Assembly: GCF_000003815.2 (NCBI RefSeq)
Contig: NC_049994.1
Location: 5,995,552-6,059,551, forward strand
DNA length: 64,000 nt
From: Branchiostoma floridae
Lineage: Eukaryota; Chordata; Leptocardii; Amphioxiformes; Branchiostomatidae
Direction of reading: 5' to 3'
Shown: positions 27,316 to 62,815 of the stretch, piece after piece
How the letters are laid out: each line of letters opens with the position of its first letter
Numbering within the stretch: the stretch's first letter is position 1
The notes under the pieces: model-generated
What the model saw: the letters and a program-made list of their open reading frames with translations, nothing else
Databases searched by the model: none
Told to the model about the DNA's origin: nothing
Translations under genes and position numbers: made by a program

Positions 27316-30300
27316 AAACAACGTTATTGCGTTCAACTGTCAAAATATTTCTGCAGAGTCATCTTGCTACAACTTAGTTTTCCACCCCCACAGTCAGTCT
27401 TACAATGTTTCAAAACCTGCAACACAGCACGAAATCTGGTATTTAAGCAAGCTTAAACTCAACGTAAACGCGACGTTTCTGCACCCTTTCCGCAACTTAA
27501 CGACATCTATCCGCGAACGTAAAGATCCCCTTTAATGTTACCTTTACGTTGGCACTTATATGTACTTATATGCACTCCTCACGTGCCTTTCCGCAACTAT
27601 TAGACGCTTAAAGGCGTCGTTAATGACAGTTTTTCGTAACCTATACGGGAGGAAAGTATGCGTTTATTAAGACCTTTCTGCACCCTTTCCGCAACTTAAC
27701 GACATCTATCCGTGAACGTAAAGATTCCCTTTAATGCACTTATATGTACGTTTCGGCACTCCTCACGTGCCTTTCCGCAACTATTAGACGCTTAAAGGCG
27801 TCGTTAATGACAGTTTTTCGTAACCTATACGGGCGGAAAGCACGCGTTTCTTAAGACCTTTCCGTGATCTTTTGACCACATTTACAGTCGATTTCCGTCA
27901 CGATTTCCCCACGTTTATGTGTCGTTTACACACCCTGAAAGGCACGCGAAGAAGTGCAGAAACGTACTTATCCGAACGCTTTCCGTGATCTTTCCTTGGA
28001 CTATAGTTGTCATTTATTTTTAGTAAAGGCGGCGTAAGTTTAAACCTTTCCGCATCTTTAGGTAGGCTTTATGTGTTTTGTGTGGCTTAAATTGGAACTT
28101 TTGCATCGGGTATGCGTGTCTTATTTGGTGTGAATCATACCTACACCGGTATCTATGGCTTTGCCGTCTAAACTATCTTGTGAGTCCAATTGTGGACTTG
28201 GATTGGTCGACCGAGGGAACAATCGGTGTACAATATCCATGCACGAATTTCCGCTACATTTAAGTCCACAATTTGGAGTCCAGTGTCGGGCGATACGCCT
28301 GGAAAGACATCATTTCAAGCAGCATAGTTCCATCTGGCCATCACATTAGGAAAAATCCGCTGAGATTCCCGAAGACGGGTACTGTTTTGTGATGAACAGG
28401 CCGTGCTCTCCATATCTCCGCCAACTTATGCTGGTCAAGATGACACAGTCTTGAATTCACCCTGAGTTGTGCCCCTTTGAAGACTCTCCAACATACTCCG
28501 TTTCTGGCAAGCCTTGAGTGTCCTATGGTTATGTCCGTTCCGTCCTGTAGTTCCGTTCGAATCCATTTGCGGCAAAGCCACGCCGATAATCCGTGTGTTG
28601 AAACGGATCCAAGGCTCCTTCTTGACTTGTCCCGAAACAGACGCCCTGCAAACTGGTTTCTTCTATAAATTATGGTATATTCGTTAGGTTTAAAAAACCC
28701 ACATTTGTCTGTCATTGGATAACGCCCTATCACATGACTGGCCTCTTCTGGGAGCTGCTAATTAGAAATTCAATGCCGCGTTGTTCGTTATTCATAGTTG
28801 ACGGCGAATAAATTTGAATTTGAAAAACACCATCCCCTTTGTACGCTGTTTAGCCAATGTTAAGCTAAACACAACTGTTACCACACTAGAAAATACCAGC
28901 CTTTCTGGGAGAACGTGATTATTGCTTGTAGATAATAAATGTTCTTCCAGATGATAAGAAAGTTTTTTTGTACAATTATATAAACAGCAAACCCGCTATA
29001 TTCCCATGATACGTTACCGCGTAGTGAGGACGCTATGTCGTCGGGATGCCAAGCTGCAAGGCACAGCCACCCGCGAGCGACATACTGCACAGGCCGCCCA
29101 GTACTAGTCCTCTTACCCTGAACGGGAACATGCCGTAATTATGACCACCAATCTTCGGGGGCATGTACCCAGTCCTCCCGGCGACTGTTATTTCCTTTCA
29201 ACAAGGAGGTTAAATATTTAATTTCCTTGCTTTCAACGCTACCTCTCCAACATCTTTTTCTGTAACTATCAATCTCCACCTCTGTAAAGAAAGTTCAGAG
29301 AGTTTTCTGAAAAGTAAGCTCAAAGGCAAAGGTAACGGAACGATATCGGTAACATACGATACTACTGGAAAATGTAAACGCTACCTTTCCGACATCTTTC
29401 TTGCACCTGTACATAGCATCTTTTTGTGTAAAGTGAGCTCAATGGTAACGTAAAGACATTGGAAAGATACCATATGTTCCATGAGGATATTTTGATTTTC
29501 CTGGTTTCGTCAAACACGCTAACACAGAATGAGTTATTCAGGCGAGGTCGCTACTTTAGTGAGAGGCGCATGTGGTATATTGAGTGGAAAATACTCGTAA
29601 TTTGGTAAAAGCAATGCCTCTTTTAAGAATAATAATTAACGCTACCTTTCCGTTTGCACCTATACATTCCAAAAATTGTATCTGCTATATGTAAGTTTTA
29701 ACCAGGAGCAAATGTTGCTTATCTTGGTTAAACTCAACACGTTAACACAGCAGGGGCTATTCAGGCGAAGCTGCTGCGTTAGTGAGGGCGCATGTGGTAT
29801 ATTGAGCGGAAAATAATGCCTCTTCTTCAAATAATGATTAACGCTACCTTTCCGACATCTTTTTTCCACCTATACATAAAAGGGGGGAGGTTTGCTTAAA
29901 CCTCCCCCTTTTATGTAAAGTCAGCTCAAATGTAACGGAAAGACATCGGAAAGATTGTATCTGTTATATGTAGCTTTCACAAAGGAGATTTACTTTTCTT
30001 GGTTAAACTTAACACGCAAACGCTATTCATTTAAAGCCGCTGCTTTAGTGAACGGCGCATGTGGTATATTGAGCGGAAAATACTCTTAATTTGGTAAAAG
30101 CAATGCCTCTTCTTCAAATAATAAATAACGCTACCTTTCCGACATCTTTTTTCCACCTATACATAAAAGGGGGGAGGTTTGCTTAAACCTCCCCCCTTTT
30201 ATGTAAAGTCAGCTCAAATGTAACGGAAAGACATCGGAAAGATTGTATCTTTTATATGTAGCTTTCACACAGGACGAGATTTGCTTTTCTTTGTTAAACT

Positions 30301-31600
30301 TAACACGCAAACACAGCAGGAGCTATTCATTTGAAGCCGCTGCTTTAGTAAGCGACGCATGTGGTATATTGAGCGGAAAATACTCTTAATTTGGTAAAAG
30401 TAATGCCTCTTCTTCAAGTAATGATTAACGCTACTTTTCCGACACCTTTTTTCCACCTATACATAAAAGGGGGGAGGTTTGCTTAAACCTCCCCCCTTTT
30501 ATGTAAAGTCAGCTCAAATGTAACGGAAAGACATCGGAAAGATTGTATCTGTTATATGTAACTTTCACAAAGGAGATTTGCTTTTCTTGGTTAAACTTAA
30601 CACGCAAACACTATTCATTTGAAGCCGCTGCTTAAGTGAACGGCGCATGTGGTATATTGAGCGGAAAATACTCTTAATTTGGTAAAAGCAATGCCTCTTC
30701 TTCAAGTAATGATTAACGCTACCTTTCCGACATCTTTTTTCCGCCTATACATAAAAGGGGGGAGGTTTGCTTAAACCTCCCCCCTTTTATGTAAAGTCAG
30801 CTCAAATGTAACGGAAAGATATCGGAAAGATTGTATCTGTTATATGTAGCTTTCACACAGGATATTTACTTTTCTTGGTTAAACTAAACACGCAAACACA
30901 GCAGGAGCTATTCATTTGAAGCCGCTGCTTTATTGAACGGCGCATGTGGTATATTGAGCGGAAAATACTCTTAATTTGGTAAAAGCAATGCCTCTTCTTA
31001 GAAATAAACGCTACCATACCTATACATAAAAGGGGGAGGTCTCCATAGACCTATACTGATAAGAGTATGTAAAATGAGATCAATTGTAACGGAAGGGCAA
31101 TGAAAATATATCATCTCCTATTGGTAATTTCCACCTTAGAGAACCACGAAAAAAAGGCGAAGGTTAACTGATTGTATGTGAACGTATGGTCGGTTCAAAG
31201 CCTGTAGATGTTTTCTGTACATAAGCAATACCCGTTTCATATACGGCGCATATAAGGATGCTTAAAGGTTATGTAAAGATATTACATGTATTTAATCTGC
31301 CTTAACGAATACGGAAAGGTTACGGAAATGTAAAACCATGGTTTCCGTGGTCTTTACGATACCGTAAACTCTGCGGAAATATTTTCCCACCTTTAGGCTA
31401 CATTTAAGTATCTCGGAAAGTATGCTTAAATATTCGTTTTCGTGCTGTGCAACTCAAAAGCTTTCACCAACGCTATTGCGTTCAACTGTCAAAAGTTCTG
31501 CAGAGTCACCTTGCCACAACTTACTTTGCCACCTCCACAGTCAGTCTTACAATTTTTTAAAACCTGTACCTCAATTCAAAAGAAGTTACTTCTCGAAGAC
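27316..31600. mobile_element. CTTTCCG-rich non-coding repeat complex bounded by direct repeats
   Basis: A ~105-bp block (ATTGCGTTCAACTGTCAAAA ... ACAGTCAGTCTTACAAT) occurs near both ends (about 27322-27430 and 31468-31590) in the same orientation. Between them, CTTTCCG and its complement CGGAAAG recur throughout. There is a two-copy ~190-bp direct repeat (27476-27653 and 27671-27834) and a tandem hairpin array (29640-31060). No open frame of known function was seen. It could be an LTR-like or composite non-autonomous element, or a satellite-like locus. Confidence 0.5.
29640..31060. repeat. ~290-300 bp tandem repeat with a perfect hairpin in each unit
   Basis: Units carry a CTACCTTTCCGACATC block, a palindrome, then GGAAAGACATCGGAAAGATT. 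The palindrome is ATAAAAGGGGGGAGGTTT, loop GCTT, and the reverse complement. Palindromes lie at about 29875-29917, 30163-30205, 30464-30506 and 30749-30791, with a degenerate one near 31025. Unit spacing is about 285-301 bp. Confidence 0.85.
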
Positions 31601-37260: not shown

Positions 37261-37395
37261 TGTCTGTGGGTGGGTGAATGTGCATAAATATAATTATATA
37301 TATCACTGACAGATACAGCCGGAGGAACGATCCAACACTGCAGACAACAGGAACAGCATCAGCAGCCCCGCCACGAGTTTTCCACAGGTCGCCAT
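35847..37395 (-). CDS. Small secreted EF-hand protein, copy 1
   Basis: Coding exons (minus): 37317-37395 (an alternative donor extends it to 37311), 36904-36989, 36710-36797 and 35847-35914, all in phase. The protein is about 106-108 residues. It starts with a signal peptide (MATCGKLVAGLLMLFLLSAV), then a short Cys-rich part (ESCCNRKLHQL). A first EF-hand-like loop DLDNNKVVTMTE spans exons 2-3, and a canonical loop DLNGDGKITEDE spans exons 3-4, ending LPKN. It probably binds calcium outside the cell or in the secretory pathway. The specific family is not recognised. A TATA box (37816-37824) and a probable non-coding first exon lie upstream, and AATAAA (35717-35722) lies downstream. Confidence 0.8.
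36061..36476. mobile_element. GGTACC-type TIR element in intron 3 of EF-hand copy 1
   Basis: Left CTAGAGGTGGCTACGATGTAC-like and right GTACCGGCACCCACCCCTAG ends are imperfect inverted repeats. The interior has GGACCTGGACCTGATCC. I saw no counterpart in intron 3 of the right copy, so it probably inserted after the duplication. Relatives: 31920-33330 and 56108-57680. Confidence 0.5.
37219..37257. repeat. (AT)n microsatellite in EF-hand copy 1 intron 1
   Basis: An uninterrupted TATATA run just downstream of coding exon 1. The mirrored copy has its own run at 45341-45380. Confidence 0.9.
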
Positions 37396-37815
37396 AATTT
37401 ACGTCACCAAAGTTTCTGCACAAAGTAACAGATGAATTAGATGTTTGTCCAGAGCCAAAATAATACCAGTGCCATTTGTTAACAATTTGTGATTTCTTTG
37501 TACCTTTAGAGAGTGAAATCCGCATCCGAAAAGTCTTGACTGCTCTTTACATCAAACAATAAACTACTACGATACACCGATTACCCGTTCAAACCAAGAC
37601 ATCGTGAGAATCAAGGAGGACAAAATACGCGATTTGAGAGAAGTCATTTTTGTCATTTTTGCACCTATGTTTAAACATGAGTCAAAGAAAAAAGCTAAGA
37701 ATCAAAGTAGAATGACTCACAGACTTAGGTTGAGTTGGAAGAATCGTCGAAGTCTCTGTCGTACCCAGTGAAGGTCTTGATGAGAACAATGAACGCTCGC
37801 TAACTGAGCAGAGGG

Positions 37816-37824
37816 ATTTATATA
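37816..37824 (-). promoter_or_regulatory. TATA box of EF-hand copy 1
   Basis: The reverse complement reads TATATAAAT, identical in sequence and context to the box at 44830-44838 upstream of copy 2. It lies about 430 bp before the start codon, consistent with a non-coding first exon. Confidence 0.55.
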
Positions 37825-39999
37825 CACGCAGGGACAAGGATGTAACACTTACTGATATGGAACGTCCTTCCTGTGAACTTATAGCTCTCAAGTGCTATGT
37901 AAACCCGGAAATGTTGCGTAAAATTCTACAAATTAGGGTTCCCCGTATAGGGTAAAACGACACAAGTACAGGGTATGAAGGGACATTAAACCAAAATGCC
38001 ATATGGTAAGTTTAGTATTTTTCTCTTCACATATCAACTTTCCAGAAAGAACATTCAACGTTAAAACAGCCTGATAGCCATGAATATGGCTAGATGTATA
38101 TACACGCGCGCATGTCGGTACTTATTCGATGGAAACTATGTGCTTAAGTTGAGCCTGTCGACCACGGCATGAGAAAACTTTTTTTCATTTCCAAAAAAAT
38201 GCTTCAATACCCGTATTTTATAAGCCATAGAAATTTTCAATATTTTCTAATTCTGAAGAACGTGGTCAACAAACTACGATTGCTATAAAGGAATGTCCAT
38301 ATGATAAATTGAAATTCAACTGTCTTCACAAATACACGGCCATCTGGAAGGAAAGAACCTGTTTGATTTATTGGCAACTTTTAATGTATTTGTCATCTAA
38401 AAGGGCAAAGTGCCTGTTCCTTGTATGTACAAAGTACTCATCTGTAGGTATGATTGTTATGAAACAGGCTGTCAACGTATTGAGGTCCAACAAGCACAGC
38501 GGTCTCTATGTACATTGCATTACACTAAGAACATCACGGTGTCTACAAACTTGAAACTTGAGGAAACTTCCCACTGCCATATTCTGAAAAAGCAAAGAAA
38601 CAGTCACTGGCATAGCTGCCGTTAGGAATGATTTACATGTCCGATCAATATAGTACTAATCTATTTTGGATATTTCTTATGTTTGAAATACATGAAATAA
38701 ACACAGCCGGATGTTGTCACATTCAAGATTTTGCATCATTGATGCTCTGTAAGTAATCATATACCCTAGGGACATGGTAGCACACGATGCTTACTCAGCT
38801 CAATTACAGAAATTGATGATTCGTTCATTAAAGATTGAAAGGTAAACACGGTACTGTTGCACCGTCTACACATGAGGTGAGCACTCGACTCTCAAATATG
38901 TAATACAGGCACAATTTTCTCTTATTCTCTTGGAATTATGGATTGCCAATGGTTGAGAGCGCATGATACATTTGGTCGGTCGAAAACATTTCTTTATCCT
39001 CATATACTCTTAAACATAATCTTGCTGATAAAGCAATCAGCCCATGTGCCAGCCCAAATAGCTCCTTGCCAGACTACATTGTTATCAGCTACTGTCTTGA
39101 CATCTTCTAATGCACGTCCAGTTCCAGGATTTATGCATTTTGACAAGAAACTTAACATTCATCGGGTCGGTGTGTTTGTAAACAGCATAACACGAGCTAC
39201 GTCGATGTAGGTTAGACATCCAGGTAATAAGATACGCCAAAAATAGTTACTCAAGCAACTGGATATGGTTTTGAAACGGTCAGACGTCTCGGATAGAATC
39301 CACTATCCTTCGTCAGTGACACTGAAGAGATCTTGAAGAAACAGGTCTTTTATACTCTAACTATGAATGAAGACAATTTCAGATGTCCAATAGGAAAGGT
39401 TGTAAGACAATTCAGACTGAAAACAATTTGGATTCCAAAGAAAACAAAGCTAAGCCAAAGTCAAGCTGAAGACAATTTGGATTTCAAAGGATATCAAGGC
39501 TAAGACACAGTTAATGCAAATGAGTCAATTAGCTTCTGTTGTTTTAGTTACAGGAGCTAAAAGTTTTGTTGGTGGGGGGGGGGATACACACGAGAACTTG
39601 TGTATTGATCTATATGATATTTTCTAAGTTGATAGGTGTTGGTAGTTGATAGGTGTTGTTAAAAGGAAAGAACCAACTTGACATAAAATATCTAATACCT
39701 GCGTGTACTTTCTATTGATTCCATCGGTTAAAAAAAAAGTAAGGAAAATCGGACCTCTGTTTTTTGAAATTTGAATTTCTTCGGAAACTTGAAGGGCCGT
39801 TGTAAGAGTGGCAGTTGTTGGCAAAAGTAAGAAGAGACTAGAAAGGCCGACATTTGCTTGAGAGCAAATACAGCATATTTCAGCCATCTCCCTCCCCATG
39901 CAACAATAGGCTATTTCAAAATCACCCATTTGAAAAATCACTTTTACTAATGACGGTTTAACCCAAAAATGGGTCTTACAAAATTCCCCCGTTCAAGAA

Positions 40000-42854: not shown

Positions 42855-44829
42855 TGACAATGGTGCCAGTGTCATGTTGCACTGCACACCACTTTTGTAA
42901 GGGATGTGGTTCTCTCCATGATAAGAATCCCAAAGTAATTATATTAAGTAGATCGCAATTTACATAATTAGCATCTCATTATGTTGATAATCACCCTAAG
43001 TACCTACCTACCAAAAGCAAAGAATATCCATCAATCCCCTCTGCAGTTATCCTTTTTAAAAGTTACAAACTATAAGACCCACTGCAGTTCCAAACAAGCT
43101 GCTAGGGGGCCCAAAATTACACCATTTACTCCTAGTCCCAACAGCTATCCACCACTTAAAAATCATGAACATGGCACTTCTGGAAAATTTAGGCGCAAGC
43201 TTTGACGCTCACTTGCAGTACCAAAACAAGTCGCTAGGAGGCCCATTATCGAACTTGACCTTCCTTTCTGTGTCCCCTACCTATCAACAAAATATCATTA
43301 GCATCCATGTAGAACATCTCGAGTTATCGTGTTAACAGACAAACGCAATTACATACAAAGCCAGCTACAGCACCATAGGTAAAAGCTAGCTAAACCATTC
43401 TCGAACATGACAATCCTTTACACAACCGCTACACACCTGCCAAATATCGTAGAAATTGCCCAGCTGCATTTTGAGTTATGCTTCTCGAAACAAACCTCGA
43501 AAAAATACAAAGGTCGCTGCTGTACCGTAGGAAAACGCCAGGTAAACCATTTTCAAACTAGGCATGCCTTTCGACAACCGCTACACACCTACAAAAAATC
43601 AAAAAGTTCCATCCACAATTTCTCGACTTATATGCTGTTGACCTACATACAGACCCAAGTAAGCAATCTTATAATCTTCGCTGGCGAAGATAACAATATA
43701 TTTCGCCATACCTGTGGTATGGCTGAAATATAAAAATTGTGCCTGTATTGCATATTTGAGAGTCGAGTGCTCACCTCATGTGTAGACGGTGCAACAGTAC
43801 CGTGTTTACCTTTCAATCTTTAATGAACGAATCATCAATTTCTGTAATTGAGCTGAGTAAGCATCGTGTGCTACCATGTCCCTAGGGTATATGATTACTT
43901 ACAGAGCATCAATGATGCAAAATCTTGAATGTGACAACATCCGGCTGTGTTTATTTCATGTATTTCAAACATAAGAAATATCCAAAATAGATTAGTACTA
44001 TATTGATCGGACATGTAAATCATTCCTAACGGCAGCTATGCCAGTGACTGTTTCTTTGCTTTTTCAGAATATGGCAGTGGGAAGTTTCCTCAAGTTTCAA
44101 GTTTGTAGACACCGTGATGTTCTTAGTGTAATGCAATGTACATAGAGACCGCTGTGCTTGTTGGACCTCAATACGTTGACAGCCTGTTTCATAACAATCA
44201 TACCTACAGATGAGTACTTTGTACATACAAGGAACAGGCACTTTGCCCTTTTAGATGACAAATACATTAAAAGTTGCCAATAAATCAAACAGGTTCTTTC
44301 CTTCCAGATGGCCGTGTATTTGTGAAGACAGTTGAATTTCAATTTATCATATGGACATTCCTTTATAGCAATCGTAGTTTGTTGACCACGTTCTTCAGAA
44401 TTAGAAAATATTGAAAATTTCTATGGCTTATAAGATACGGGTATTGAAGCATTTTTTTGGAAATGAAAAAAAAAGTTTTCTCATGCCGTGGTCGACAGGC
44501 TCAACTTAAGCACATAGTTGCCATCGAATAAGTACTGGCATGCGCGCGCGTATGATACATCTAGCCATATTCATGGCTATCAGGCTGTTTTAACGTTGAA
44601 TGTTCTTTCTGGAAAGTTGATATGTGAAGAGAAAAATACTAAACTTACCATATGGCATTTTGCTTTAATGTCGCTTCATACCCTGTACTTGTGTCGTTTT
44701 ACCCTATACGGGGAACCCTAATTTGTAGAATTTTACGCAACATTTCCGGGTTTACATAGCACTTGAGAGCTATAAGTTCACAGGAAGGACGTTCCATATC
44801 AGTAAGTGTTACATCCTTGTCCCTGCGTG

Positions 44830-44838
44830 TATATAAAT
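44830..44838 (+). promoter_or_regulatory. TATA box of EF-hand copy 2
   Basis: TATATAAAT is followed about 30 bases later by a likely start region and a short non-coding exon ending near 44933 at GTGAGT. The next exon begins at 45228 after TTTGTGCAG and contains the start codon at 45248. Confidence 0.55.
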
Positions 44839-45247
44839 CCCTCTGCTCAGTTAGCGAGCGTTCATTGTTCTCATCAAGACCTTCACTGGGTACGACAGAG
44901 ACTTCGACGATTCTTCCAACTCAACCTAAGTCTGTGAGTCATTCTACTTTGATTCTTAGCTTTTTTTTGTGACTCATGTTTAAACATAGGTGCAAAAATG
45001 ACAAAAATGACTTCTCTCAAATCGCGTATTTTGTCCTTGATGCTCACGATGTCTTGGTTTGAACGGGTAATTGGTGTATCGTAGTAGTTTATTGTTTGAT
45101 GTAAAGATCAGTCAAGACTTTCCCTTTCACTCTCTAAAGGTACAAAGAAATCACAAATTGTTAACAAATGGCACTGGTATTATTTTGGCTCTGGACAAAC
45201 ATCTAATTCATCTGTTACTTTGTGCAGAAACTTTGGTGACGTAAATT

Positions 45248-45336
45248 ATGGCGACCTGTGGAAAACTCGTGGCGGGGCTGCTGATGCTGTTCCTGTTGTC
45301 TGCAGTGTTGGATCGTTCCTCCGGCTGTATCTGTCA

Positions 45337-45381
<45 letters not shown>

Positions 45382-47129: not shown

Positions 47130-49500
47130 TCTATTTGTTTCCGTGTAACTGTCTTTATTCATCTTACTTTTTAAAAACTTTTCAGTGATGTTCAATGTAA
47201 GACTATCTTAAAGAAATTGGATATCGTAGCTGATTTTCAAGACGTGATGTTAAGATATTTAAACCAAATAGAACAACGGTGATAATGAAACAGACAGACA
47301 CAAAAGGCAAACAGAGAACTAAAAAGATTAATTCAAACACAAGTAAACGAGGTGATATCTACAAATGAAGTAGTGTGGTCTGTTAGGCTTGTCTTGCGTT
47401 TTTCACCTACCATCTGCAATATGTGTTTTCTCGTCCAAACACAAAATAATGACATGAAAAGACAACTGTAAAATGCAAAAAGTTACATTTTGATGAATGG
47501 AGGCTCAGGATTTCATTTTGCTTCTTAGGAGTCGAAACAGAATTAATGAATTCTCGAGAGTTAACTTTGATGTTAGAAGGGAGACCTAAAATATTAACCT
47601 GCATGCGGCTTCTCTACTGCGCTTGGAATTGTACAGTTCCACGGGCGGTAAAGAAGCTACACGTAGGTTGATATTGTGCTTCATTCAGTGGGGCCGTAGT
47701 GACAAGACAACAATTTACAAGTGATTTTAACTAGGTTGGCTTTATTTTAATCTTAGAAAATATGTATTTATTTAATTCAATAACACATGACAAAGACAAT
47801 GTGGCGCTGTACTCAAGTTATAACAACTTATTTGAACAGCTCCACATAACAAAATACAAATAAATAAATAAATGTACTTAGTTAATCAACATATCAGTGC
47901 GCCAAGCCCACCACCCAAAGACGTACCACAGTAGTACCATTGTTAGCTTAATTAAGTACATATGAAAAAGAAAATTAACGACAGTATAGCTGGGACTTTT
48001 ATAATGTTTTAACCATCAGCTGGCTGACGTTAGACTGACCCTACCGATGTTCTATGTGCGTTGAGTGTACACGTCAACATAATGTCGCCACGTACCCTAA
48101 AACAGACATATTGAAAAAAAATCACAGCAAATTTAAAATCACATCGAAAAAATCACTCTCCTCTGATAGAGATTAAACTTGTGCCGTAGTATCGTCAAAC
48201 TGGTCTTCTTGAATTAAAGCACTATACTGCCATAATGAATATGAATTTAAGGCATTGATTGACCCTGCAAACAAGTCTAGGAGAACCATTTGCATAGAAT
48301 TCAAATAACAGTATTTTCATGTTGAAAACTCAGTTGTAACGTTTTCAAATTCCTATAGAAATGAGAAATTTGAGTTGAGAAATCTTATCGTATGAGCATA
48401 AATTAAGAACCTCTAACTGAACTGGATTGTGATGACATTTGGCATGTGTGCGGGCGATGTGTCTATCCCCCACCCCCAACCTTGAAATTGCGGTAGAGAT
48501 TCTGATTTGTGTATCATTGTGCCCTGGTAAACTATGATCTTATTTTTGTTGTTGCGGATGTACTAAAGATGTAAGGAAGAAGTACTATTAGCAGTGTATG
48601 TTTAGGTCCCGTGGCAGCCTGTTTTTTTTAAAGTTACGTTACAGTTCAAACCTGACACGTATAATCACGTAAGTATCATGCATATTCAACGACCACCTCC
48701 CAGCCAAATTAAGGTACTTTGAAAGCTTTATTCACAGAATTTAGCTGAACCGCTCCTTATTTGGGTATAGTCCTTTGGCCGGGTTTCTTTGATAATAGTT
48801 TGAGTGATATCATAGTATGGGCGTGGGTGCACATTCATTTCATACGCATGCGCTTTTAAGGCAATATAGACCTTTTCCAAAGCCCTTGCTGTGAAAGTTT
48901 ATAGCAGCAAAACACACGTACATTTCGGGGTGTTCGTCTGTGCAAGCATCGTCTGTCGACAAACTGAGGTATTTCTAGTTTTTAGATTCCCTTTCCTTAG
49001 ATTTCTTTCCTTTGATTTTTCTTTGAGCCTTTTTCATCTCTGACACAATCACCAAAACACTCCCAAAGCTGCAGTACTGCTAATCTCAGGCTAATATTAC
49101 CGGGTGGTGCAGTTACGCAGGCGGGGGAGAAGACTGTAGTGACCGAGCAAACCAAAAGCTTATATATAGCCGTAGGAGCGACTGGTGAATTACACGGCAT
49201 GCACATGCATTGTACCTTGTGCGATTGTTTAGCAATAAAATTCGATCATTCATACAAGTTAACGTTACATGTACTTCTTGCTCTATTCCTTTGACTGAGC
49301 ATCATTCCAAAAGTCACTAAAATTTTTATGCCAGATGACGCCAATTCGATACGGAATGGCGGAATCAATTTTTTACATCTAAAATATTTTTTTGTAAATA
49401 TATGGCTTGTGTAAAATAGCATTCAACGACGTCAAAAGAAGTACGTAGCTTATCGCAAAGGGCAAGTCTGATTTACTGCTTTTCTTTTTTTCAACACAGG
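47130..49500. other. Intergenic sequence upstream of the lectin gene
   Basis: This stretch includes a diverged copy of the dispersed family at 48400-48640 and a possible TATA element (TTATATATAG, about 49160-49169). The lectin gene's non-coding first exon probably lies between about 48900 and 49250 but could not be fixed. No other gene was recognised. Confidence 0.4.
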
Positions 49501-49501
49501 A

Positions 49502-52500
49502 ATGGCGACAACAGAGACAACGCCGCTGCCGGAACAAGAGCACACAAAAAAGAAAGATGTGGGTGTGACAAAACCGAGCTCAAAGCTTCAGCGGGCGCTG
49601 CGTGAGGAAGATGCTAAAGAGGAAGATGTGGACGTCCCAAAGATCGGCTCAGCACATCAACCCTCAGTGCCTAACATATACACACCCGCTCCAACACGCG
49701 GGAAACAAACCCATAAAGTAAAAGAAGAGATGTCCTGTTCTATCGATGGGAAAGATCCCAAAATACGAAACAAGGATACCGATCGTGAGAAACATCTATA
49801 TGAACACAACATTGTCGGAGAACAGACCGAAGCATGCCCCTGCGGTTCCACCGCCGACAAACAACCTGCCGCGGCCGGGCCTCGATACCTTCACGTCGGA
49901 GATCACGTAATGGTGTGTTCGGGACATGAATCAGAAAACACCTACGCGTACCAAAAGGCCGAAGAAGTCAGCGAGGGGTACGAAGAAGATCATTGCTCTC
50001 ACTATTACAAAACCCCAGAGGAATGTTACGGCTACAAAGTGCCTGAGGAAATAAACAAGGCGTATGAGGAAGGGTCTTCCTTCCTCACACGACTACGACA
50101 AACCAGAGGGTGCCTACCGGTACAAAGTGCCTGAGGAAGTAAACAACGAGTTTGAGGAGCAATCTTCTTTCCAAGACTACGACAAACCAGAGGATGCTTA
50201 CCGGTACAAAGTGCCTGAGGAAGTAAACAAGACGTGTGAGGAGGTGCCTTCTTCACACGACTACGACAAACCAGAGGATGCTTACCAGTACAAAGTGCCT
50301 GAGGAAGTAAACAAGACGTGTGAGGAGGTGCCTTCTTCACACGACTACGACAAACCAGAGGATGCTTACCGGTACAAAGTGCCTGAGGAAGTAAACAAGA
50401 CGTGTGAGGAGGTGCCTTCTTCACACGACTACGACAAACCAGAGGATGCTTACCGGTACAAAGTGCCTGAGGAAGAAAACAACGCGTATGAAAAGGAGCC
50501 TTCCTCACACGACTACGACAAACCAGAGGATGCTTACCGGTACAAAGTGCCTGAAGAAGTACACAAGACGTTTGAGGAAAAGTCTTCTTCACACGACTAC
50601 GACAAACCAGAGGATGCTTACGGGTACAAAGATCCTAAGAAAGTCAGCTTTGCATACAGGGCTAAAGGTACGTTACAGCATTGAATACAACATTTACACC
50701 GTTTTGATGCAATTCACTATTATAGCTATATTATTTATAATTTCCATAGCACATTGTTGACAGAAACACTGTAACTACATTGTATGTTTCTAGTTTGAGA
50801 ATTTTGAGAAAGGAATTGGTTTTTCATTATCTTCCTCGACAAAGACTACTAGTAGATACCTGGAGAGACAATTAATCAGCCATCAAACGACAACAAAGGT
50901 CTACATCTGATAAAAAGTTGTGTAAGAAAACATTTCATTTGGGCGATTAAAAAAAAAACCTCATTTCTTCTTTTGGCTTTTGCATAAATATTTGTTGTAT
51001 TAGTCTGTTATAATTTTGCCTTCAAAAGATGGTCATGAAGAGGAACACACCTGCAGCTGTGATGGAAAAGCATAATAAATGAATTCATAAAATTGAATTG
51101 ACAGACAGAGTATCTATAAATAAACAAAAAAACTACGCTGCAAGAAAAACAATACCTTCACCATTTGCGAGCATGCATTTCACCGATAACACATAGGAGA
51201 AAAGAAGAATATATTGCCAATATCCACATTCTTTAGATGCAAAAATCGAGGAAAATGGCTCTCAAACTTGCTTGGCCTGTTGCCATGGCGACAAAAACAG
51301 TTAAGCAGAATGAAAACTTTTTGATGTATGTGTATAAGCTTTTTGATGTTTGTATGTTGTGTTAAATGTTCTTATGTTTAGGTTTGTGCAAGCCTAATGC
51401 TATATTCTTAAGCATTGCAAGTTCGGGTGTTTTCGTGAGTTTGTTAGTGCTAAGATAGTGGTTTCTTTAGGTTATATTTGATTTGTGTATATTTGAGATG
51501 TCTCGTTTTGTATTCTTAAATCTTCTGATTTTGTTGCAAATGGAAATGTTGATGATGATGGGAATGTTTGAGTAGTATCTATGCACATTTGTGACATGTG
51601 TAAAATTGAAACAAGAAAAGGAAAACCCTGCACAGAAACCCAGGGATGACAACCCTGCACAGAAGTCCTAGGGAAGAAATCCTAGCACAGAAAATCCAAG
51701 GGGATAAATCACCCCTGTAAAAAGTCCTATGGAGTAAACCCTAGTCAAAAAAGTCAATGAGAATGGCCCATGCAACAATATATAAACATGTTATAGTATA
51801 TAGTATTGCATATGCCTAGATGATTGGGTAAAAGTAATCTAGTGTGTAAAGTGGTAAGGAAATACTTGTGTAAACATTTTATAGTGATTGTTTTTAGTAA
51901 TTGTGTATGTTACATGGTGATACAAGTGAGTAGGTGAGCTTTGAGTGTTATGCAATTATCTCCATGAAGAAATGGAGATATAATTGTGTGTGTTCACGTG
52001 TGTGTCTATGTGTCTGTCTGTGTGTGTGTGTGTGTGTGTGAGTGTGTGTGTGTGTGTGTGTGTTTGTTTGTTTGTTTGTTTGTGTTTTGGATATTTGTGG
52101 TCAGCATAACTCATAGATTACAATGATATTTGGCATGTAGGTGTTGGCAAGACGACGGTCAAGGTCTATTTTGGGCCCCCTGGTATGTGACCTTGGTACT
52201 GCAGCAGAAATTCCGTTTTATGTATCTTTTGACCTAGATGTGCTATGGTTTTGATTTTTTTGTGGCGGATAGCTTGTGACGTAAGGAATAGGTGGTGTTT
52301 GTTTGGGTCCCCTATAGCTAGGAGGTTGTTCTGGAAGTGCATGGGCGTTTTTTCTCAAAATCTTCTAAGGAGAATAACTGGACAAGGGAACGACAAATTT
52401 AGATGATATTTGGTATGTAGATAGTTTTGACAGAGATGTACAAAATCAAGTGCAAATTATGCAAACGTGTACTTAATTTGCATAATAAATGAGGGAAATC

Positions 52501-55500
52501 TATGTTTGTAGTGTTTGCCATTGTAGGACTCAAATACCTGTCATATATGTAGTTTGTGGCTGGTGGAACATTAACAGATATCAATTATGCAAATACGTCC
52601 CTTATTTTCAAAATTACTGTAAAAGTGCTATAATTCTTCTAAATTGAAAATGATTGCACAATCAACATTGTGACCATTGGAAGTTATCTAAATGTGTACA
52701 TAACCAAGCATAGATTATGTAAATGTGAACTCATATACATCAGACTATTTCATGGTGGAGATCTCAGAACTCTTGTTTATGACTCAGAGGGGTGGGAAAA
52801 ACGATGTTTCGGATCGGCGCAACCGTTATTTACCGTTATTACAGACGTTTGTTCAGAATGCATTTTTCTACTCCTCTTTCATCTCAGAACGTGTCGTGGA
52901 AATAGGGAGTGCGTGGAAATCTAGTAAAGTCTGCTGGCTTGCAATGGGTTGTGGACTTCTGGCCGTAGCATCAGTTGTCATCGCTGGCATCCTGGCAACT
53001 CACTTCTTCGTCACTTCCGATGGGAGGGTAAGTCTGGAAGTCTTGTTTACAGGGGCTGAGTGGCCATACGTACTTAAGCATTCTAATTTGATATAGGAGA
53101 ATTCTTTTTACACAACCAGCAGGTACTTACATTGCTTACGTTTCGATGTCTCTCAGACACCTTTGTCAGAGCTTCTAACTGGAGTTCTGCTTCTCACCGC
53201 TATATGTAGCCTATGTATGTGGCGCTTTTGCGATGAGAAAACAATCCCAAACGTGGCTAAGCCTGTACCCCCCCCCCCCCCCCCTCGTCCCGGTTAATCA
53301 CTGGGGTTGACTTTCTTATCCGGATCGGCTCATTCTTATTTGCTTCGGCTAGCCTGGGTACCATGCTCCACAGTAGCCACGCTGGCTCAATCTCACTTGC
53401 TTACCAGGTGGCACGTGGCTGGCTAGGCTAAACGTTGGTAGGTGTTTTTTTTTCAACCCAGGTCAAGGCAGAACAACCATAAATCATCCAGCCATCGGAA
53501 AATTGCGCGTTAAAGAATTGCCTGTATAGTGTATAGTCTNNNNNNNNNNNNNNNNNNNNNNNNNNNNNNNNNNNNNNNNNNNNNNNNNNNNNNNNNNNNN
53601 NNNNNNNNNNNNNNNNNNNNNNNNNNNNNNNNNNNNNNNAGGCAACAAAACACACAAAACGTATTATGGTTGCAATGGGATCGAAGTGGAATGGAAGTGG
53701 AATGGAAGTGGAATCGAATGGAAGTGGAATGGAAGTGGAATGGAAGTGGAAGGGAAGTGGAAGGGAAGTGGAAGGGAAGTGGAAGGGAAGTGGAATGGAA
53801 GTGGAATGGAAGTGGAATGGAAGATATATTTCAACGCTGTGCTCTTGTATCTAGGTGGCTTATGGTTCAAAACTACAACAAAATGGCACGATGATCCTGA
53901 AATCCAGTACTCCATGGAAGACGGCATTCTGTGAAGAAAACAATTCGGCTTTTGACGAGTTGATAGTCATGGACAGCAGTTTGACCGCCGATGCTTTACC
54001 AGGAACTACCCAATTCCTGTTAACCACTGGTAAGTAATTGGAATGGTGTTTATTTTATCATGAATTTCCATAGCTAGCTATTGTTCATGGTGCTCTTTTT
54101 CATGACAATGGCATTTTATGACAATAATACTTTTTTTTTCTTTATAACGTTCTCGTGTAGTTATTCGCTAAAAAATTTTGCATTTTCGGTGGAAAATTGT
54201 ATGTAACAAATAATCTATCAGTTCTTTTTTTGCCCAAAGCACTTAGCTAAATTTTGCAAACTCTAACCTCTACCAGTAATCTTATCACATACTATAACGC
54301 TGGATCTAAAACATTCTTGTAAAAAGGTAGCAGTTTTATGAAAAGCCTAAGGTGAGATTTAACAGAATACTCACCGCCGCCCTTCTTGCGCTGAATCCAC
54401 AATAGATTTGAGCTTCAAAACAAAATACGCCGGGTTTGGTCCTTGTTTACCGGCTAATGTAATCCATTATATTGTGCCCAAGCGACTTTCCTTGTGTGAG
54501 AAACATACCTCAGACCATTACAAGCTTAGGAGACCTTATATTGACAACTGTAGCTCTTTACCTCTTTTTAAAACAAAATCGACCCATGCAATTTAAAAAA
54601 AGAGCAGCTACCCGATTTACTCCCCCAAGAGCTGTTGGACACTTAACCCATGGCCATAAAATGTACATAACACGAAGTTCCACTGCAGTATCAAAGAAGG
54701 TCGCTGTAGGACCCAAAGTTTATTTTTTTTGGTCTCATCAAAACGAACCAAACAAACAAAAAAACAAGTAGGAAGATAGTTTATCCCGGCATTCACACAC
54801 ACTAACATACACGAATGCTGCGGAAAACATAACCTTCATGGCGAAGATAGTAACAATAACGACGTATAATTACAGGATCGCGATAGCGAAGCCTGTTCTG
54901 GTTTCGTTGGCATCCATGGGCGCCGCCATGTTGAATTTTGACATGGTCATCAGTCCTTTTCCAACACAATTGTTGACGTCGCGTGTCCGTCAAGTCACCT
55001 GACACGACAATTTGTGACTTGAATTTTGAAGAGGAATCATCAAAGCTTGTGTATGTCTGTAGCAAATTCGATACTATCAATTATTGTAATGGACAGATGT
55101 TAAGCTCTGCATTATAGTAGTACTAGCTAGTACAGATCAACTGTCAATCTAGTGAAGAAAACTCATTCCTAATAAAAATTACCACCGAGCATTGTGGTTA
55201 TCCAACATATAGAGCTAGTGAATGCAAGATATATGTCCAACCTTCTGTAAAATTTCAAATATTATCACAGCTCTGCAGTGTCCGAGAGAGTGGAGGAAAT
55301 ACAACAACCACTGCTACAAACTGATGACAGACAGGCGCAAATGGTTTGCAGCGAGCTCACGATGCATGCAACACGGCGCTATGCTTATCTCTATCAACGA
55401 CGAGGCCGAGAACTACTTTGTCAAAAATCTCATCTCGAACTGTGGGTAACATGTACTATACGAAAATGTCATAGTAAACAAGTGACCACTAGGGACCATT

Positions 55501-58479
55501 CTCCTACGCAGAGATATCCAAAGGCGCCAGCAAACCGTCTCTTGTCTGTACTCTGCTCTCAACCGTCACCATCAGTTCCTGACCGCCCTGTTTATGATAT
55601 TAATGAGCTTACCCTTATATATGCGAGATCCCTTTAGAAAACTAAAGGCATATTCTCTGATTGGCTGACAGCTGGTTTGTGGCGACGCCCACAGGAACTG
55701 ATGGCGACGGTTAAGATAGCAGAGTACAGACAAGAGGCAGTTTGCTGGCGCCGTTGGATGTCTCTGCGTAGAAGAATGCTAGGGACAAGATTCTTAATAG
55801 TTGGGTCAAGTAAAAAATGATCTAAGCCAGGACCACGGATAGTATCTTTGCTTTTTTCTTGTTAAAAATTGCCATATCACTTTGTTTTAGAAATGAGAAA
55901 CATCACGGTGATATATTCATCCCTTCAAAGAATGACAATTACTCCACTGTATTAAAAATATGGTTAGCATGTGTTATCCAGCATATAGTCTTTCCTTAGA
56001 CCTTGTATTAGCATTCAATTGCCAACATTCACTATGGCTTTAAAAATTAGCCATTTATGTGCAATGATGGAAAACAAACAAAGACAACAGCGCCCATCCC
56101 CATAACTAGGGGTGGGTACCGGTACAGACAATTTAGGTCCAGGTTCGATTTGGGTCCAGAAGATTAGGTCCAGGTCCTGACCTGAACCTGATTTAGTATG
56201 TGAAAATATGTGAATGGACGATGCTCAAAACAATGGTCCATTTTGCTACAAAGAAATCTATTTTGTGCAGTATTCAACTCCCACTCCGGGCGTTTTGAAA
56301 GCCTACAGGGCTAACTGACTTTGTACGATTGATTGTAAAACTTGGTACAAATGACTACAGACTCTACTTCGCTCTTGTTACTTTCCTCAATAGGTAAGCC
56401 CCCCAAACGTGTGAATTAAGGGTTAATTCACCGCCCCGAGGTGTATATGGTGTCATAACGCCTGGTCCTTTGCTAAATAAAACCACCGAGTGAGCGAACG
56501 AGGTGGTTTTATTCGGTGGTTGTAGCAAAGGACCAGGCGTTATGACACCANNNNNNNNNNNNNNNNNNNNNNNNNNNNNNNNNNNNNNNNNNNNNNNNNN
56601 NNNNNNNNNNNNNNNNNNNNNNNNNNNNNNNNNNNNNNNNNNNNNNNNNNTACCCAAACTTGCAACTCGTGTATGACGCATAGATCCCTTGGTACTATAC
56701 GTGTGAATGCCTTTGTCGAATTTCTGAAAAGTAACATTTGTTCTATGGTACACACATTTGTGAGGTGATAACAGATTGCATTTTGAAACCAAAATTTCTA
56801 CAGAAAATATTCACAACATTGCAGTCTATGGCTTACTAGAACGACGAAACTCATTATCAATCTGAACAGAAGCAGCCATTCTCCCCTTGCAGTTACGTAT
56901 TCCCTCTGCTCTGGCATACTGTTTTGATCCTTTATATTGGCCAATGCCTGCATATCCCTTACTTTCTTGTGTGTATCGCTCCTTCTGATTGGTCAGAATG
57001 AATCGACACCAGCACCTATAGTGGTGCGTACCGAAAGCCCGGACTTGGAATTGGACCTAAAAATGTTTCGGTCCAAGTCCAAAGAAAGACCTAAATGTCC
57101 GGAGCCAAGTCCGGACTTGCAAAAAGCAATCTGTCACTTATATTCCCTTTTTTTTGTTCTAAACCGTCTAAAATCTTTCATAGACAGTGAAATTTGCACT
57201 GGAAAAAGAAAAAAAAAAACAGTTCGTGTTTACACTGGCTGTCTATCATTTTCATATATTTTTCACATTGCATTTCAATTCATGCTAACATGCAATTTTA
57301 TATGCACCATCCCCCCTCCCCCTAAAAAAAATGCACATGATATGCGATGATGGGTTCAGGTCCGGACTTTAAGTCCAGACCTGAACCTGAACTGCTGGAC
57401 CTGAATCCGGACCTGAACCTGAAGTTGAGTTTAGGTACGCACCACTACCAGCACCGGTGTCGATTCATTCTGACCAATCAGAAGGGGGATACACACCGGC
57501 CTGGCCGGAATCTTTGTGTTACGGCGTCATAACCAACGTGGAACTGGGCCTTCTGGTTGATCCGCGCCGCAATATCTGATCATATAGTCTGTTTGAATAG
57601 GTCCAGCAGCCGAATTTTTTTCAGGTTCGGTTTTTCTGGACCGGTTCAAGAGGAAAAACTGGTTTTGTACCCACCCCTACCCGTAACTAAAGAGTCGACG
57701 GAGGTTACAAATAGCTTATTAAGACTATGATTCTTGGATTTTCGTTTCAGATAAGAGGAAGGTTCCAGCCATCTGGATGGGTCTACATAAAAAGTCTGGA
57801 CAGTGGAAGTGGACAGATGGGTCACGTTTACTCTACAAAAACTGGGTTCCGGGGGAGCCGAATAACAATAAATGGTACTCGAATTTTAAGGGAGAGAACT
57901 GTGCCGTCGTGTATTCCAAGGTGTGTGCCTCTTTCATTTTTCGAGTACGATAACCGAGTTCTTAGTGTTTGCGCTATTCTTTATCAATATCAGTTTATAA
58001 TCCCGGTTAAACATGTCAAAGTCACTAACTCACAAGTGAGTAAAGTCACGATTTTCATCCAGTTGTAGTGATAGAGTTACCTTTCAATCTAGGATTTAGA
58101 CTCTTGAAATAAATAAGTCTGAATCGTGTAAGATTCTTAAATATTATTTCGTGCAAGGATATTCATTTCTTAAGTTTGAAACAATAATTACCATCAAATA
58201 AATTGAGATACTGACATAATTAATGGACTATAGAGTAGTTATAGTTGCTATGATGCATAATTTGCATAAAAACGGCAATGTTTTTTTGCCTTGATGGTGT
58301 TTCAATGAGTGCCTTTGCGGAAAATGCAGTCCTCTTCATGTAATATGTTTGCGTTTTCCTCTTTTTGACAGAACTACAAATTTTCAAGATTTGGAAAGAA
58401 AATGCACCCTGGGCAGTGGAACGACTTCCGATGCGGCGCTGCCTATGCCTACATTTGTGAGAAACAATCTAACAACTAG
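49502..58479 (+). CDS. Type II transmembrane C-type lectin receptor with cytoplasmic YxxP repeat array (frame broken by a 4-bp duplication)
   Basis: Coding exons 49502-50667, 52888-53027, 53855-54029, 55271-55441, 57751-57920 and 58372-58479 join in phase once the 4-bp duplication at 50077-50084 is allowed for. The ATG lies two bases after a TTTTCAACACAG acceptor. In order: a ~390-residue acidic N-terminal cytoplasmic region with 28-residue repeats; a TM helix (CWLAMGCGLLAVASVVIAG) preceded by Trp-Lys-Ser-Ser-Lys, so positive-inside; a ~58-residue stalk with two N-glycosylation sequons (NGT, NNS); and a long-form CTLD. CTLD landmarks are CPREWRKYNNHCYKL, WMGLH, a calcium-site EPN (GEPNNN), and WND before FRCGAAYAYICE. 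EPN plus WND predicts calcium-dependent mannose-type binding. As assembled, translation stops at 50132-50134, before the TM segment. The donor after Asn at 55441 (GTGGGT) is inferred from phase. Confidence 0.85.
49980..50660 (+). repeat. 84-bp (28-residue) coding repeats with paired YxxP motifs
   Basis: Seven full units read HDYDKPEDAYRYKVPEEV with variants, each followed by NKTCEEVPSS-like residues. They are preceded by a degenerate unit (YYKTPEECYGYKVPEE). Each unit has a YDKP and a YKVP, about 16 YxxP in total. The central units are almost identical at the DNA level, so unit number is likely to vary between alleles. Confidence 0.9.
50077..50084 (+). other. 4-bp tandem duplication causing a frameshift
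   Basis: TTCC is present twice here (TCTTCCTTCCTCACAC), whereas the repeat consensus has TCTTCCTCACAC or an equivalent. With one copy removed, the 28-residue spacing between YKVP and the next YDKP is exactly kept. With both, the frame ends at 50134. It could be a real null allele, a slippage polymorphism, or an assembly error. Confidence 0.8.
50668..52887 (+). other. Lectin intron 1, with a dispersed-repeat copy
   Basis: It contains short imperfect AACCCTGCACAGAAGTCCTAG-like iterations (51620-51760), a (GT)n tract (52017-52085), and a copy of the dispersed family (about 51940-52560) sharing TTGTGGTCAGCATAAC and TGTGACCTTGGTACTGCA with 32360-32720. No coding exon was seen. Confidence 0.6.
53540..53639. 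other. Assembly gap (100 N)
   Basis: 100 N in lectin intron 2, close to the GGAATGGAAGT microsatellite that probably hindered assembly. Confidence 1.
53675..53826 (+). repeat. 12-bp GGAATGGAAGTG minisatellite
   Basis: Tandem GGAATGGAAGTG / GGAAGGGAAGTG units lie directly after the gap, 28 bases before the lectin stalk exon. Gly/Glu/Trp/Lys-rich open frames across it are artefacts. Confidence 0.95.
55497..55778. mobile_element. Foldback MITE with 8-bp target duplication (hAT-type)
   Basis: Long inverted arms begin CATTCTCCTACGCAGAGA and end TCTCTGCGTAGAAGAATG. The element is flanked on both sides by CTAGGGAC (55489-55496 and 55779-55786). An 8-bp duplication is characteristic of hAT-superfamily (or P-type) mobilisation. 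It lies in a lectin intron and has no coding capacity. Confidence 0.8.
56448..56550. repeat. Nested perfect palindrome abutting the gap
   Basis: Arms 56448-56475 and 56523-56550 (TGGTGTCATAACGCCTGGTC...) are 28-bp perfect inverted repeats. Between them AATAAAACCACC and GGTGGTTTTATT form an inner hairpin. The N gap starts at the last base of the right arm. Confidence 0.9.
56551..56650. other. Assembly gap (100 N)
   Basis: 100 N placed directly after the palindrome, in a lectin intron. Confidence 1.
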
Positions 58480-58639: not shown

Positions 58640-59163
58640 GGGACGGCGTAGCATAGTGGTAGTGTGTTCGCCTCGGAACCGAGAGGTTGTGGGTTCGAAT
58701 CCGGCTGCCGTGTTACCGATCTTGTGCCCTTGGGAAAGGCACTTTAAGCTTTACACGGCTTTCCTCACTTTACTCAGGTGAAAATGAGTACCTAGCTTCA
58801 GCTAGGGCCGTCCCTCGGATAGGACGTTAAATGGAGGTCCCGTGTATGGGGAGAGCCACACCCCATGCACGTTAAAGAACCCCCACACGTGCGATGGTGC
58901 GGTGTGCGTTGGTGCAAATCCTTCTGTTGAGTTGGTGATTCACTTCAAATCACCCGGATGGAGGCCTGGCGAACTTGTGTCTCGTATCAGCCACATGGTG
59001 ATTTACATCATTCACCTGGACGGGAGCCCTGGCGCATCCCCGTCTTAAGCTTGTAATTATCCAGCGAAAGGTATGTCACCCCGTAAGGGGCGGTATAACC
59101 CCGTCTTGTGTAAACACGTGCGAACATGTGCGATCACGTCGACCGATGATGATGATGATGATG
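58640..59163 (+). mobile_element. tRNA-derived SINE, ~524 bp
   Basis: The head has an A box (TAGCATAGTGG, about 58650) and a perfect B box (GGTTCGAATCC, 58692-58702). A long conserved body follows (CCTTGGGAAAGGCACTTT, GAACCCCCACACGTGCGATG), ending in a (GATGAT)n tail. The head folds like part of a tRNA, but the body and tail show it is a SINE. It lies 160 bases beyond the lectin stop codon. Confidence 0.85.
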
Positions 59164-61715: not shown

Positions 61716-62100
61716 ATATGCAATATTTTTCTAATACATTACTGATTGAACAGATTGAATCCATTATTAGACACAATTGAAGAATATCAATTGCGCGTTG
61801 TGTAAAGGGAGAGAGATCACTAGACAAACTCTATTTAAATCCAGGAAAAATAAATCTAATGATGAAGTTCTCAACCAGTTTCAACTTAATTGACTAAATT
61901 CCTTGCTCTAGAGTCCTTGCTCTCTTCTTTCCCTTTACCTCCTGATCCAGGTGAGCAGATTCTACAGATTTGTTCCATTATCAGACAAAAGGCTGCTTCA
62001 TCATCTCAGGTGGCATTCTCTTTGAGTGAGGTATATCCAAGGACCGTGGATCGGTAGAAGGATGATGAACTCCACAGCTGTGGATTTCATCGATATGTAG

Positions 62101-62815
62101 TGATGAAATCCACGGGCATTCCGCCGCTAATACTAACATTTAGCTGTGGACTTCATCAGTATGTAGTGATGAAATCCACGGGCATTCCGTCGCTAATACT
62201 GACATTTGGCTGTGGACTTCATCAGTATGTAGTGATGAAATCCACGGGCATTCCGCCGCTAATACTGACATTTGGCTGTGGACTTCATCAGTATGTAGTG
62301 ATGAAATCCACGGGCATTCTGTCGCTAATACTGACATTTGGTTGTGGACTTCATCAGTATGCAGTGATGAAATCCACGGGCAATCCGTCGCTAATAGTGA
62401 CATTTGGCTGTGGACTTCATCAGTATGTAGTGATGAAATCCACGGGCATTCCGTCGCTAATACTGACATTTGGCTGTAGACTTCATCAGTATGTAGTGAT
62501 GAAATCCACGGGCATTCCGCCGCTAATACTGACATTTGGCTGTGGACTTCATCAGTATGTAGTGATGAAATTCACGGGCATTCCGTCGCTAATACTGACA
62601 TTTGGCTGTGGACTTCATCAGTATGTAGTGATGAAATCCACGGGCATTCTGTCGCTAATACTGACATTTGGTTGTGGACTTCATCAGTATGTAGTGATGA
62701 AATCCACGGACATTCTGCCGCTAATATTGACATTTGGTTGGCTGTGGATTTCATCAATATGTAGGGGTGAAATCCACGGGCATTCCGTCGCTAATACTGA
62801 CGTTTAGCTGTGGAT
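62101..62815. repeat. 66-bp hairpin minisatellite, ~11 units
   Basis: Units start TGATGAAATCCACGGGCATT at 62101, 62167, 62233, 62299 and every 66 bp to about 62763. Each unit pairs TGATGAAATCCAC with GTGGACTTCATCA, so every unit can form a hairpin. The array has long stop-free frames on both strands (22-residue period). This is better explained by the unit sequence than by a gene. Confidence 0.9.

What the first reader, a model, noticed from the sequence alone, without database searches (positions are those of the whole stretch)
49502..58479. C-type lectin receptor with a Cas-like YxxP docking array in its cytoplasmic domain
Seen: 28-residue repeats each with YDKP and YKVP, about 16 YxxP in all, on the N-terminal side of a TM helix whose flanks predict inside orientation, joined in phase to a CTLD with EPN and WND. 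Known: pYxxP is the preferred ligand of Crk-family SH2 domains, and the Cas substrate domain is a repeat array of such sites. Inference: this is a receptor that couples calcium-dependent glycan binding directly to multivalent Crk/Nck recruitment. I do not know of a described lectin with this arrangement.
Basis: partly seen in the sequence, partly recalled or inferred. Interest (0 to 1): 0.88.

Follow-up and report, generated by a model that had tools for sequence, protein, structure and literature searches.

The report
Lancelet lectin receptor with YxxP array
This lancelet gene joins a sugar-binding lectin head to an inside-the-cell tail carrying many copies of a tyrosine motif that adaptor proteins grip in other animals, and it belongs to a lancelet receptor family that pairs the same kind of tail with different heads, although the copy in this window carries a reading-frame break.

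Summary
The sequence elements are real: a 7-unit, 84-bp coding repeat (YDKP plus YKVP per 28 residues), 16 YxxP in all, then a TM helix, stalk and C-type lectin domain with EPN and WND. All five introns from array to stop are GT-AG and in phase. Correction: exon 49502-50667 is not one frame; the ATG frame stops at 50134 and the array frame opens at 50055, so this copy is a broken allele, a pseudogene or an assembly error.

It is one of a family: 29 homologues were found, all Branchiostoma, sharing the tail but bearing CTLD, EGF, both, or F5/8 plus kringle heads. In the 21 with a clear TM, 135 YxxP precede it and 3 follow. In units chosen without scoring the YxxP positions, both YxxP are mostly kept and neither tyrosine becomes phenylalanine, while a third tyrosine drifts to histidine.

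Best reading: type II clustering receptors whose phosphorylated tails dock Crk-type SH2 adaptors. No phosphorylation, adaptor or transcript evidence was available. YxxP-array receptors are known (DCBLD1/2, choanoflagellate proteins), so this is a new variant of a known kind; lectin coupling, tandem array and exchangeable heads were not described in the papers searched.

The parts
49502..50134 (+). Exon A, ATG frame: N-terminal cytoplasmic part with the conserved RYLHVGDHV-like block (here RYLHVGDHVMV) and the first YxxP pair (50006 YKTP, 50033 YKVP); this frame ends in a stop at 50132-50134. Acceptor AG just upstream at 49498-49499.
   Evidence: homologous to the N termini of P0004, P0021, P0022
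50055..50667 (+). Exon A, array frame: seven YDKP/YKVP units from 50091, donor GT at 50668; out of frame with the ATG
50039..50090 (+). Place of the frame break: junction of 52 nt where the six other junctions have 48 nt
52888..53027 (+). TM exon: basic juxtamembrane segment and one helix (about 52929-52991)
   Evidence: matches 10 of the 20 homologues searched
53855..54029 (+). Stalk exon, Ser/Thr-rich, with N-glycosylation sequons
   Evidence: matches 11 of the 20 homologues searched
55271..55441 (+). CTLD exon 1 (long-form start, CPREW)
57751..57920 (+). CTLD exon 2 with EPN (57855-57863)
58372..58479 (+). CTLD exon 3 with WND (58417-58425) and TAG stop

Best explanation
The locus is one copy of a lancelet multigene family of type II membrane receptors. 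Outside is an exchangeable head (here a long-form C-type lectin domain with EPN and WND) on a stalk with N-glycosylation sequons; inside is a probably disordered tail ending in a tandem array of paired YxxP sites. Most likely working: a multivalent ligand clusters the receptors, Src- or Abl-family kinases phosphorylate the YxxP tyrosines, and Crk-type SH2 adaptors (possibly also Nck- or Vav-type) dock in many copies and drive actin remodelling or uptake of the bound particle. Shown: sequence, splice signals, family, topology signals, retention of YxxP. Inferred: ligand binding, phosphorylation, adaptor identity, outcome. The window's own copy has a frame break between start codon and array, so whether this copy makes the full receptor is open.
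For: Array, TM, stalk and CTLD exons splice in phase. 29 homologues, all Branchiostoma, share the tail region or its units; gene models of B. lanceolatum, B. belcheri, B. floridae and two hybrids join the tail to the TM block (16 of 29 aligned). P0021 is 78.5% identical over window residues 15-297 and has 10 YxxP in one uninterrupted protein. In 21 of 29 homologues with a TM-like segment (mean hydropathy above 2), 135 YxxP are before it and 3 after; the N flank is the more positive in 17 of 21. In 59 distinct homologue units picked without scoring the YxxP columns: Y1 51, P1 54, Y2 45, P2 46, no F at either Y; the third tyrosine of the unit is Y in 27 and H in 16. Between seven arrays the YxxP columns are 0.86 identical, the rest of the core 0.44, the spacer 0.27 (Y1 anchors were chosen by motif). 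B. floridae transcribes two crk genes (PMC5043372, passages).
Against: Frame break in this copy. No transcript, phosphosite or binding data. Homologues are database gene models; 8 of 29 show no clear TM segment and P0021's model ends just after the TM. Several members have only 1-3 YxxP. Other unit columns (K, E, D after the first Y) are as strongly kept as the YxxP, though those were scored for inclusion. The tail model has 3 N-glycosylation sequons against 2 in the ectodomain, so sequon count gives no support to the topology. The AlphaFold model of a homologue is poor outside the TM.
Confidence: 0.6

Rival explanations
1. The window's copy is a decaying pseudogene or null allele of an otherwise working family; the array here has no function of its own.
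For: Frame break between ATG and array. Lectin C-type genes are over-represented among dispensable genes in two lancelet species (PMC12373286, passages).
Against: The other exons are open, all splice sites are canonical and the CTLD motifs are intact. A single indel in a tandem repeat is also what a local assembly error would give; the own-genome searches did not complete.
Confidence: 0.4
2. Same receptor family, but the paired sites serve mainly other SH2 proteins (Nck, Abl, Vav, RasGAP), not Crk. The first site (mostly YDKP) and the second (mostly YKEP, YKDP or YKVP) may be read by different adaptors.
For: Two distinct consensus sites per unit are kept across the family. Overlap of YxxP preferences between these SH2 domains is recalled.
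Against: Crk-type SH2 binding to cytosolic YxxP arrays has direct precedents (PMC6029619, PMC5043372), and two crk genes are transcribed in B. floridae.
Confidence: 0.25
3. The array is a structural or spacer repeat conserved by recent duplication and gene conversion, not a phosphotyrosine dock.
For: Within the window the core codons are identical between units, a sign of recent copying; acidic residues around the sites are also kept.
Against: Arrays with different spacers and periods in other genes and species keep the YxxP more than the rest; the non-YxxP tyrosine drifts, the YxxP tyrosines do not go to F.
Confidence: 0.12
4. Exon A and the TM/CTLD exons belong to different transcripts, so no lectin carries the array.
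For: A 2.2-kb intron separates them and the frame break cuts ATG from array; no transcript was available.
Against: Phases match; independent homologue models make the tail-TM join, and P0001, P0002 and P0003 run from array through TM to CTLD.
Confidence: 0.06

Closest known systems
DCBLD1/DCBLD2 (vertebrate scaffolding receptors)
   Same: Transmembrane proteins with 7-8 intracellular YxxP that bind the CRKL SH2 domain; Src-family kinases and Abl promote it (PMC6029619: abstract, introduction and section 15 read)
   [quoted passage not shown] no lectin domain; no DCBLD protein appeared among the homologues
Choanoflagellate transmembrane proteins with YxxP repeats (PTSG_05573 and others)
   Same: Predicted TM proteins with several cytosolic YxxP (10 in PTSG_05573); two pYDVP peptides of it bind a choanoflagellate Crk SH2 in ITC (PMC5043372 section 10 read)
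   Different: DUF5011, thrombospondin or growth-factor-receptor-like heads; three of five carry SH2-like domains; the word lectin does not occur in that paper's main text
p130Cas/BCAR1 substrate domain
   Same: About 15 YxxP, phosphorylated by Src, read by Crk/CrkL SH2 (PMC5043372, passages)
   Different: Has SH3 and FAT-like domains; no TM and no extracellular head (recalled)
Type II C-type lectin receptors (DC-SIGN, ASGR groups)
   Same: C-terminal CTLD; the CTLD matches CD209 and ASGR1 chains in the PDB by sequence
   Different: Short tails without a YxxP array (recalled)

Membership tests
C-type lectin domain proteins | CTLD above the Pfam cut-off | tested here: met
   PF00059 59.8 bits against 22.6; 237 distinct PDB sequences at E up to 0.001
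C-type lectin domain proteins | calcium/sugar motifs EPN and WND | tested here: met
   both present in the sequence; binding itself not tested
Type II membrane receptor | no N-terminal signal peptide, one internal TM, more positive N flank | tested here: met
   TM-like segment from model residue 402, N flank +2, C flank 0, N terminus not hydrophobic; hydropathy and charge only, no dedicated predictor
Lancelet YxxP-tail family (defined here) | shared N-terminal block, YxxP units and TM block | tested here: met
   but the window's copy has a frame break between block and array
Cas (BCAR1) family | N-terminal SH3 and C-terminal FAT-like domain | tested here: not met
   no such Pfam match at E up to 1 in the two window pieces
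Cas (BCAR1) family | multiple YxxP | tested here: met
   16
DCBLD family | CUB, LCCL and discoidin (F5/8) ectodomain | tested here: not met
   no such Pfam match in the window pieces; one family member, P0020, has PF00754 with kringle
Crk-SH2 docking receptor (as a function) | phosphorylation-dependent Crk SH2 binding | not testable with these tools
   needs an experiment

The most novel reading that the evidence does not exclude
Lancelets have built a diversified recognition-receptor family in which many different heads (EPN- and QPD-type lectins, EGF chains, F5/8 plus kringle) plug into one common Cas-like docking tail, with array length (1 to 22 YxxP) setting signal gain: a Crk-based counterpart of ITAM-based immune receptors.
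Probability: 0.35. Interest if true: 0.82.

Novelty: new variant of a known kind. Interest (0 to 1): 0.62.

Why it matters
It would show glycan recognition wired directly to a multivalent Crk-type scaffold, without a separate Cas protein or ITAM adaptor, in a basal chordate. Natural variation in array length across paralogues (1 to 22 YxxP) would make the question of how SH2-site number sets signalling output testable in one family. It also gives a family-level identity to lancelet models now named after versican or neurocan (names).

Tried and rejected
Extracellular repeats: disfavoured by position and flank charge. Separate genes for array and lectin: disfavoured by homologue models. Chance YxxP: rejected. 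Other family members or EGF exons in this window: tblastn of the first 20 homologues (of 29), low-complexity filter on, matched only this locus.

Replaced analyses: the first unit-alignment script failed; a scan at a loose threshold gave 131 hits but 26 chance windows in the shuffled set and was replaced; a between-array comparison with off-register anchors was replaced. The within-array codon comparison (pS 0.213, pN 0.152) is uninformative, since the units are young and 12 bases past the exon end were included in the last unit.

AlphaFold model of homologue P0002 with 16 sequences: mean pLDDT 45; 10-residue blocks from 131 to 510, which hold the array, all below 50; TM blocks 75-89; CTLD partly modelled. 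Consistent with a disordered tail but weak; no fold search was made. The array's match to Pfam PF21705 p55_CTD (31.8 bits, above the cut-off of 27, but no single stretch passing E 1, positions 2-23 of 80; also 27.7 bits in P0021) was judged repeat-composition similarity and not followed up.

Literature, judged from listings (titles and abstract starts) unless said otherwise: YxxP with amphioxus 1 paper, YxxP with 'lectin domain' 0, Crk/SH2/C-type lectin receptor/cytoplasmic tail 5, amphioxus and lectin searches papers, of which 18, 14, 11 and 20 were listed, and a broad search with 1,043 papers of which 20 were listed. None of the listed titles or abstract starts describes this family. Only open-licence PMC papers were searched.

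Full report
What is in the sequence. Exon A begins after an acceptor AG at 49498-49499, has an ATG at 49502 and ends at 50667 before a GT. Tandem Repeats Finder reports period 84, 7.3 copies, 89% matches, 50015-50631. Seven units start at 50091, 50175, 50259, 50343, 50427, 50511 and 50595. Exons 52888-53027, 53855-54029, 55271-55441, 57751-57920 and 58372-58479 follow with AG/GT boundaries and agreeing phases, giving array, TM, stalk and CTLD up to TAG. The first CTLD exon uses a GTGGGT donor; that choice is mine and makes the phase fit.

The frame break. It is two: the ATG frame runs 49502-50134 including its stop, the array frame is open from 50055. From one YKVP to the next unit there are 52 nt at the first junction and 48 nt at the six others. 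The homologue P0021 is a single protein across the corresponding place. The other exons are open. The window's own genome could not be reached, so assembly error, allele and pseudogene stay open. An ATG at 50064 lies in the array frame (read); its context looks weak by eye.

Motif count. With an X at the break the model has 641 residues and 16 YxxP, all in the 397 residues before the TM and none in the 218 after it; shuffles average 2.7, maximum 10 in 10,000.

Relatives. Three protein searches gave 20, 21 and 17 proteins, 29 distinct, 29 of 29 named Branchiostoma. In some searches only the candidates sharing most words were scored, and the method needs shared 5-residue words, so distant relatives elsewhere are not excluded. 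By the precomputed Pfam columns of those tables: PF00059 without EGF 9, EGF without PF00059 11, both 4, F5/8 plus kringle 1 (P0020), neither 4 (P0012, P0014, P0021, P0022). Among the first 20, YxxP counts run from 1 (P0008, P0010) to 22 (P0002). In 16 proteins aligned (of 29) the residues DHVV of the N-terminal block are invariant. The sugar motif varies by member: EPN in the window, P0003, P0005, P0010, P0011, P0013; QPD in P0002, P0023, P0026; EPG in P0001, P0015, P0025; EPS or DPS in P0027-P0029 (read). That EPN favours mannose-type and QPD galactose-type sugars is recalled.

Topology. Of 29 homologues, 21 have a segment with mean hydropathy above 2; in these 135 YxxP precede it and 3 follow (P0005, P0006, P0025). 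In P0026 the segment used is the second of two TM-like stretches of a long model. The N flank is more positive than the C flank in 17, less in 3 (P0007, P0008, P0021), equal in 1 (P0009). The other 8 (P0013 to P0020) show no clear TM in their models and were left out of this count. Some of these may be models with a shortened or skipped TM exon; a soluble isoform is not excluded. Sequons do not help: 3 in the tail, 2 in the ectodomain of the window model.

Are the YxxP kept for themselves? Units were picked in the 29 homologues (window left out) by a score that ignored both Y, both P and the third tyrosine. At threshold 30, shuffled sets give 0.95 hits on average; the real set gives 66 units, 59 distinct, in 28 proteins: Y1 51, P1 54, Y2 45, P2 46 of 59; the first full YxxP in 47, the second in 39, at least one in 55; no F at either Y. 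The third tyrosine, not in a YxxP, is Y in 27 and H in 16. K, E and D after the first Y (0.81, 0.98, 0.83) are kept as strongly, but these columns were scored for inclusion. At threshold 26 (4.55 chance hits) the four counts are 57, 60, 53 and 52 of 72. Seven long arrays (window, one hybrid, B. lanceolatum, four of B. belcheri) have mostly 28-residue periods (30 in P0002; single exceptions of 27, 29, 30, 37 and 53) and different spacers. Mean between-array identity is 0.86 at the YxxP columns, 0.44 in the rest of the core and 0.27 in the spacer. The first site was used for anchoring, so the second is the fairer test: 41 of 48 units keep it.

Mechanism. Crk-type SH2 domains read pYxxP, and B. 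floridae transcribes two crk genes (PMC5043372, passages). DCBLD1/2 show that a receptor with several cytosolic YxxP binds CRKL SH2 once Src-family or Abl kinases act (PMC6029619, abstract and sections 3 and 15). Choanoflagellate membrane proteins with YxxP repeats have peptides that bind a Crk SH2 (PMC5043372 section 10). By analogy, clustering of the lancelet receptors by a multivalent ligand would create a membrane-bound Crk platform. The step from Crk to Rac- or Rap-driven actin change is recalled general knowledge; for lancelets it is inference. The two sites of each unit differ in consensus (YDKP-like and YKEP/YKDP/YKVP-like), so two adaptors may be served; that too is inference.

Comparison and novelty. 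It works like DCBLD and the Cas substrate domain, if the inference is right, and is a member of neither: SH3/FAT-like and CUB/LCCL features were not found. It belongs to the C-type lectin domain group and to a lancelet family not described in the listings I saw. What looks new is the type II layout, the tandem array, the lectin coupling and the exchangeable heads. Lectin C-type genes are over-represented among dispensable genes of B. floridae and B. belcheri (PMC12373286, passages), which would fit family turnover and a broken copy here.

Noticed in passing
window 37284-38918 and 43733-45359: Near-perfect inverted repeat in three segments (740, 483 and 235 nt, 99-100% complementary), 4.8 kb between the inner arms: mobile element, recent palindromic duplication or assembly artefact.
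   Followed up: partly
window 5336-8654 and 18755-19643, minus strand: Likely exons of dynamin-like GTPases: Dynamin_N 4.2e-11 at 18755-19180; 6.7e-4, below the cut-off, at 8388-8654. One stretch, 5777-6100, instead matched PF02112 at 4.7e-6.
   Followed up: partly
window 23618-24728, minus strand: Exons of a putative cyclase (PF04199, 4e-08 and 1.8e-12).
   Followed up: partly
window 62077-62814: 66-bp tandem array, 11 copies, open in several frames (249 codons in one); probably a minisatellite.
   Followed up: no
window 13383-14863 and 29815-31007: Further satellite-like arrays: period 65 (22 copies) and period 288 (4 copies).
   Followed up: no
window 58641-58714: tRNA-Pro (cgg) called about 160 bp downstream of the lectin stop codon; may be part of a tRNA-derived repeat.
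   Followed up: no
homologues P0023 and P0026: Their tails hold a different repeated tyrosine block (NYTDLKP, YCHP) before the common YDKP units, which may mean other docking codes in the family.
   Followed up: no
homologue P0025: The gene model includes a reverse-transcriptase domain (PF00078): perhaps a retroelement in an intron taken into the model.
   Followed up: no
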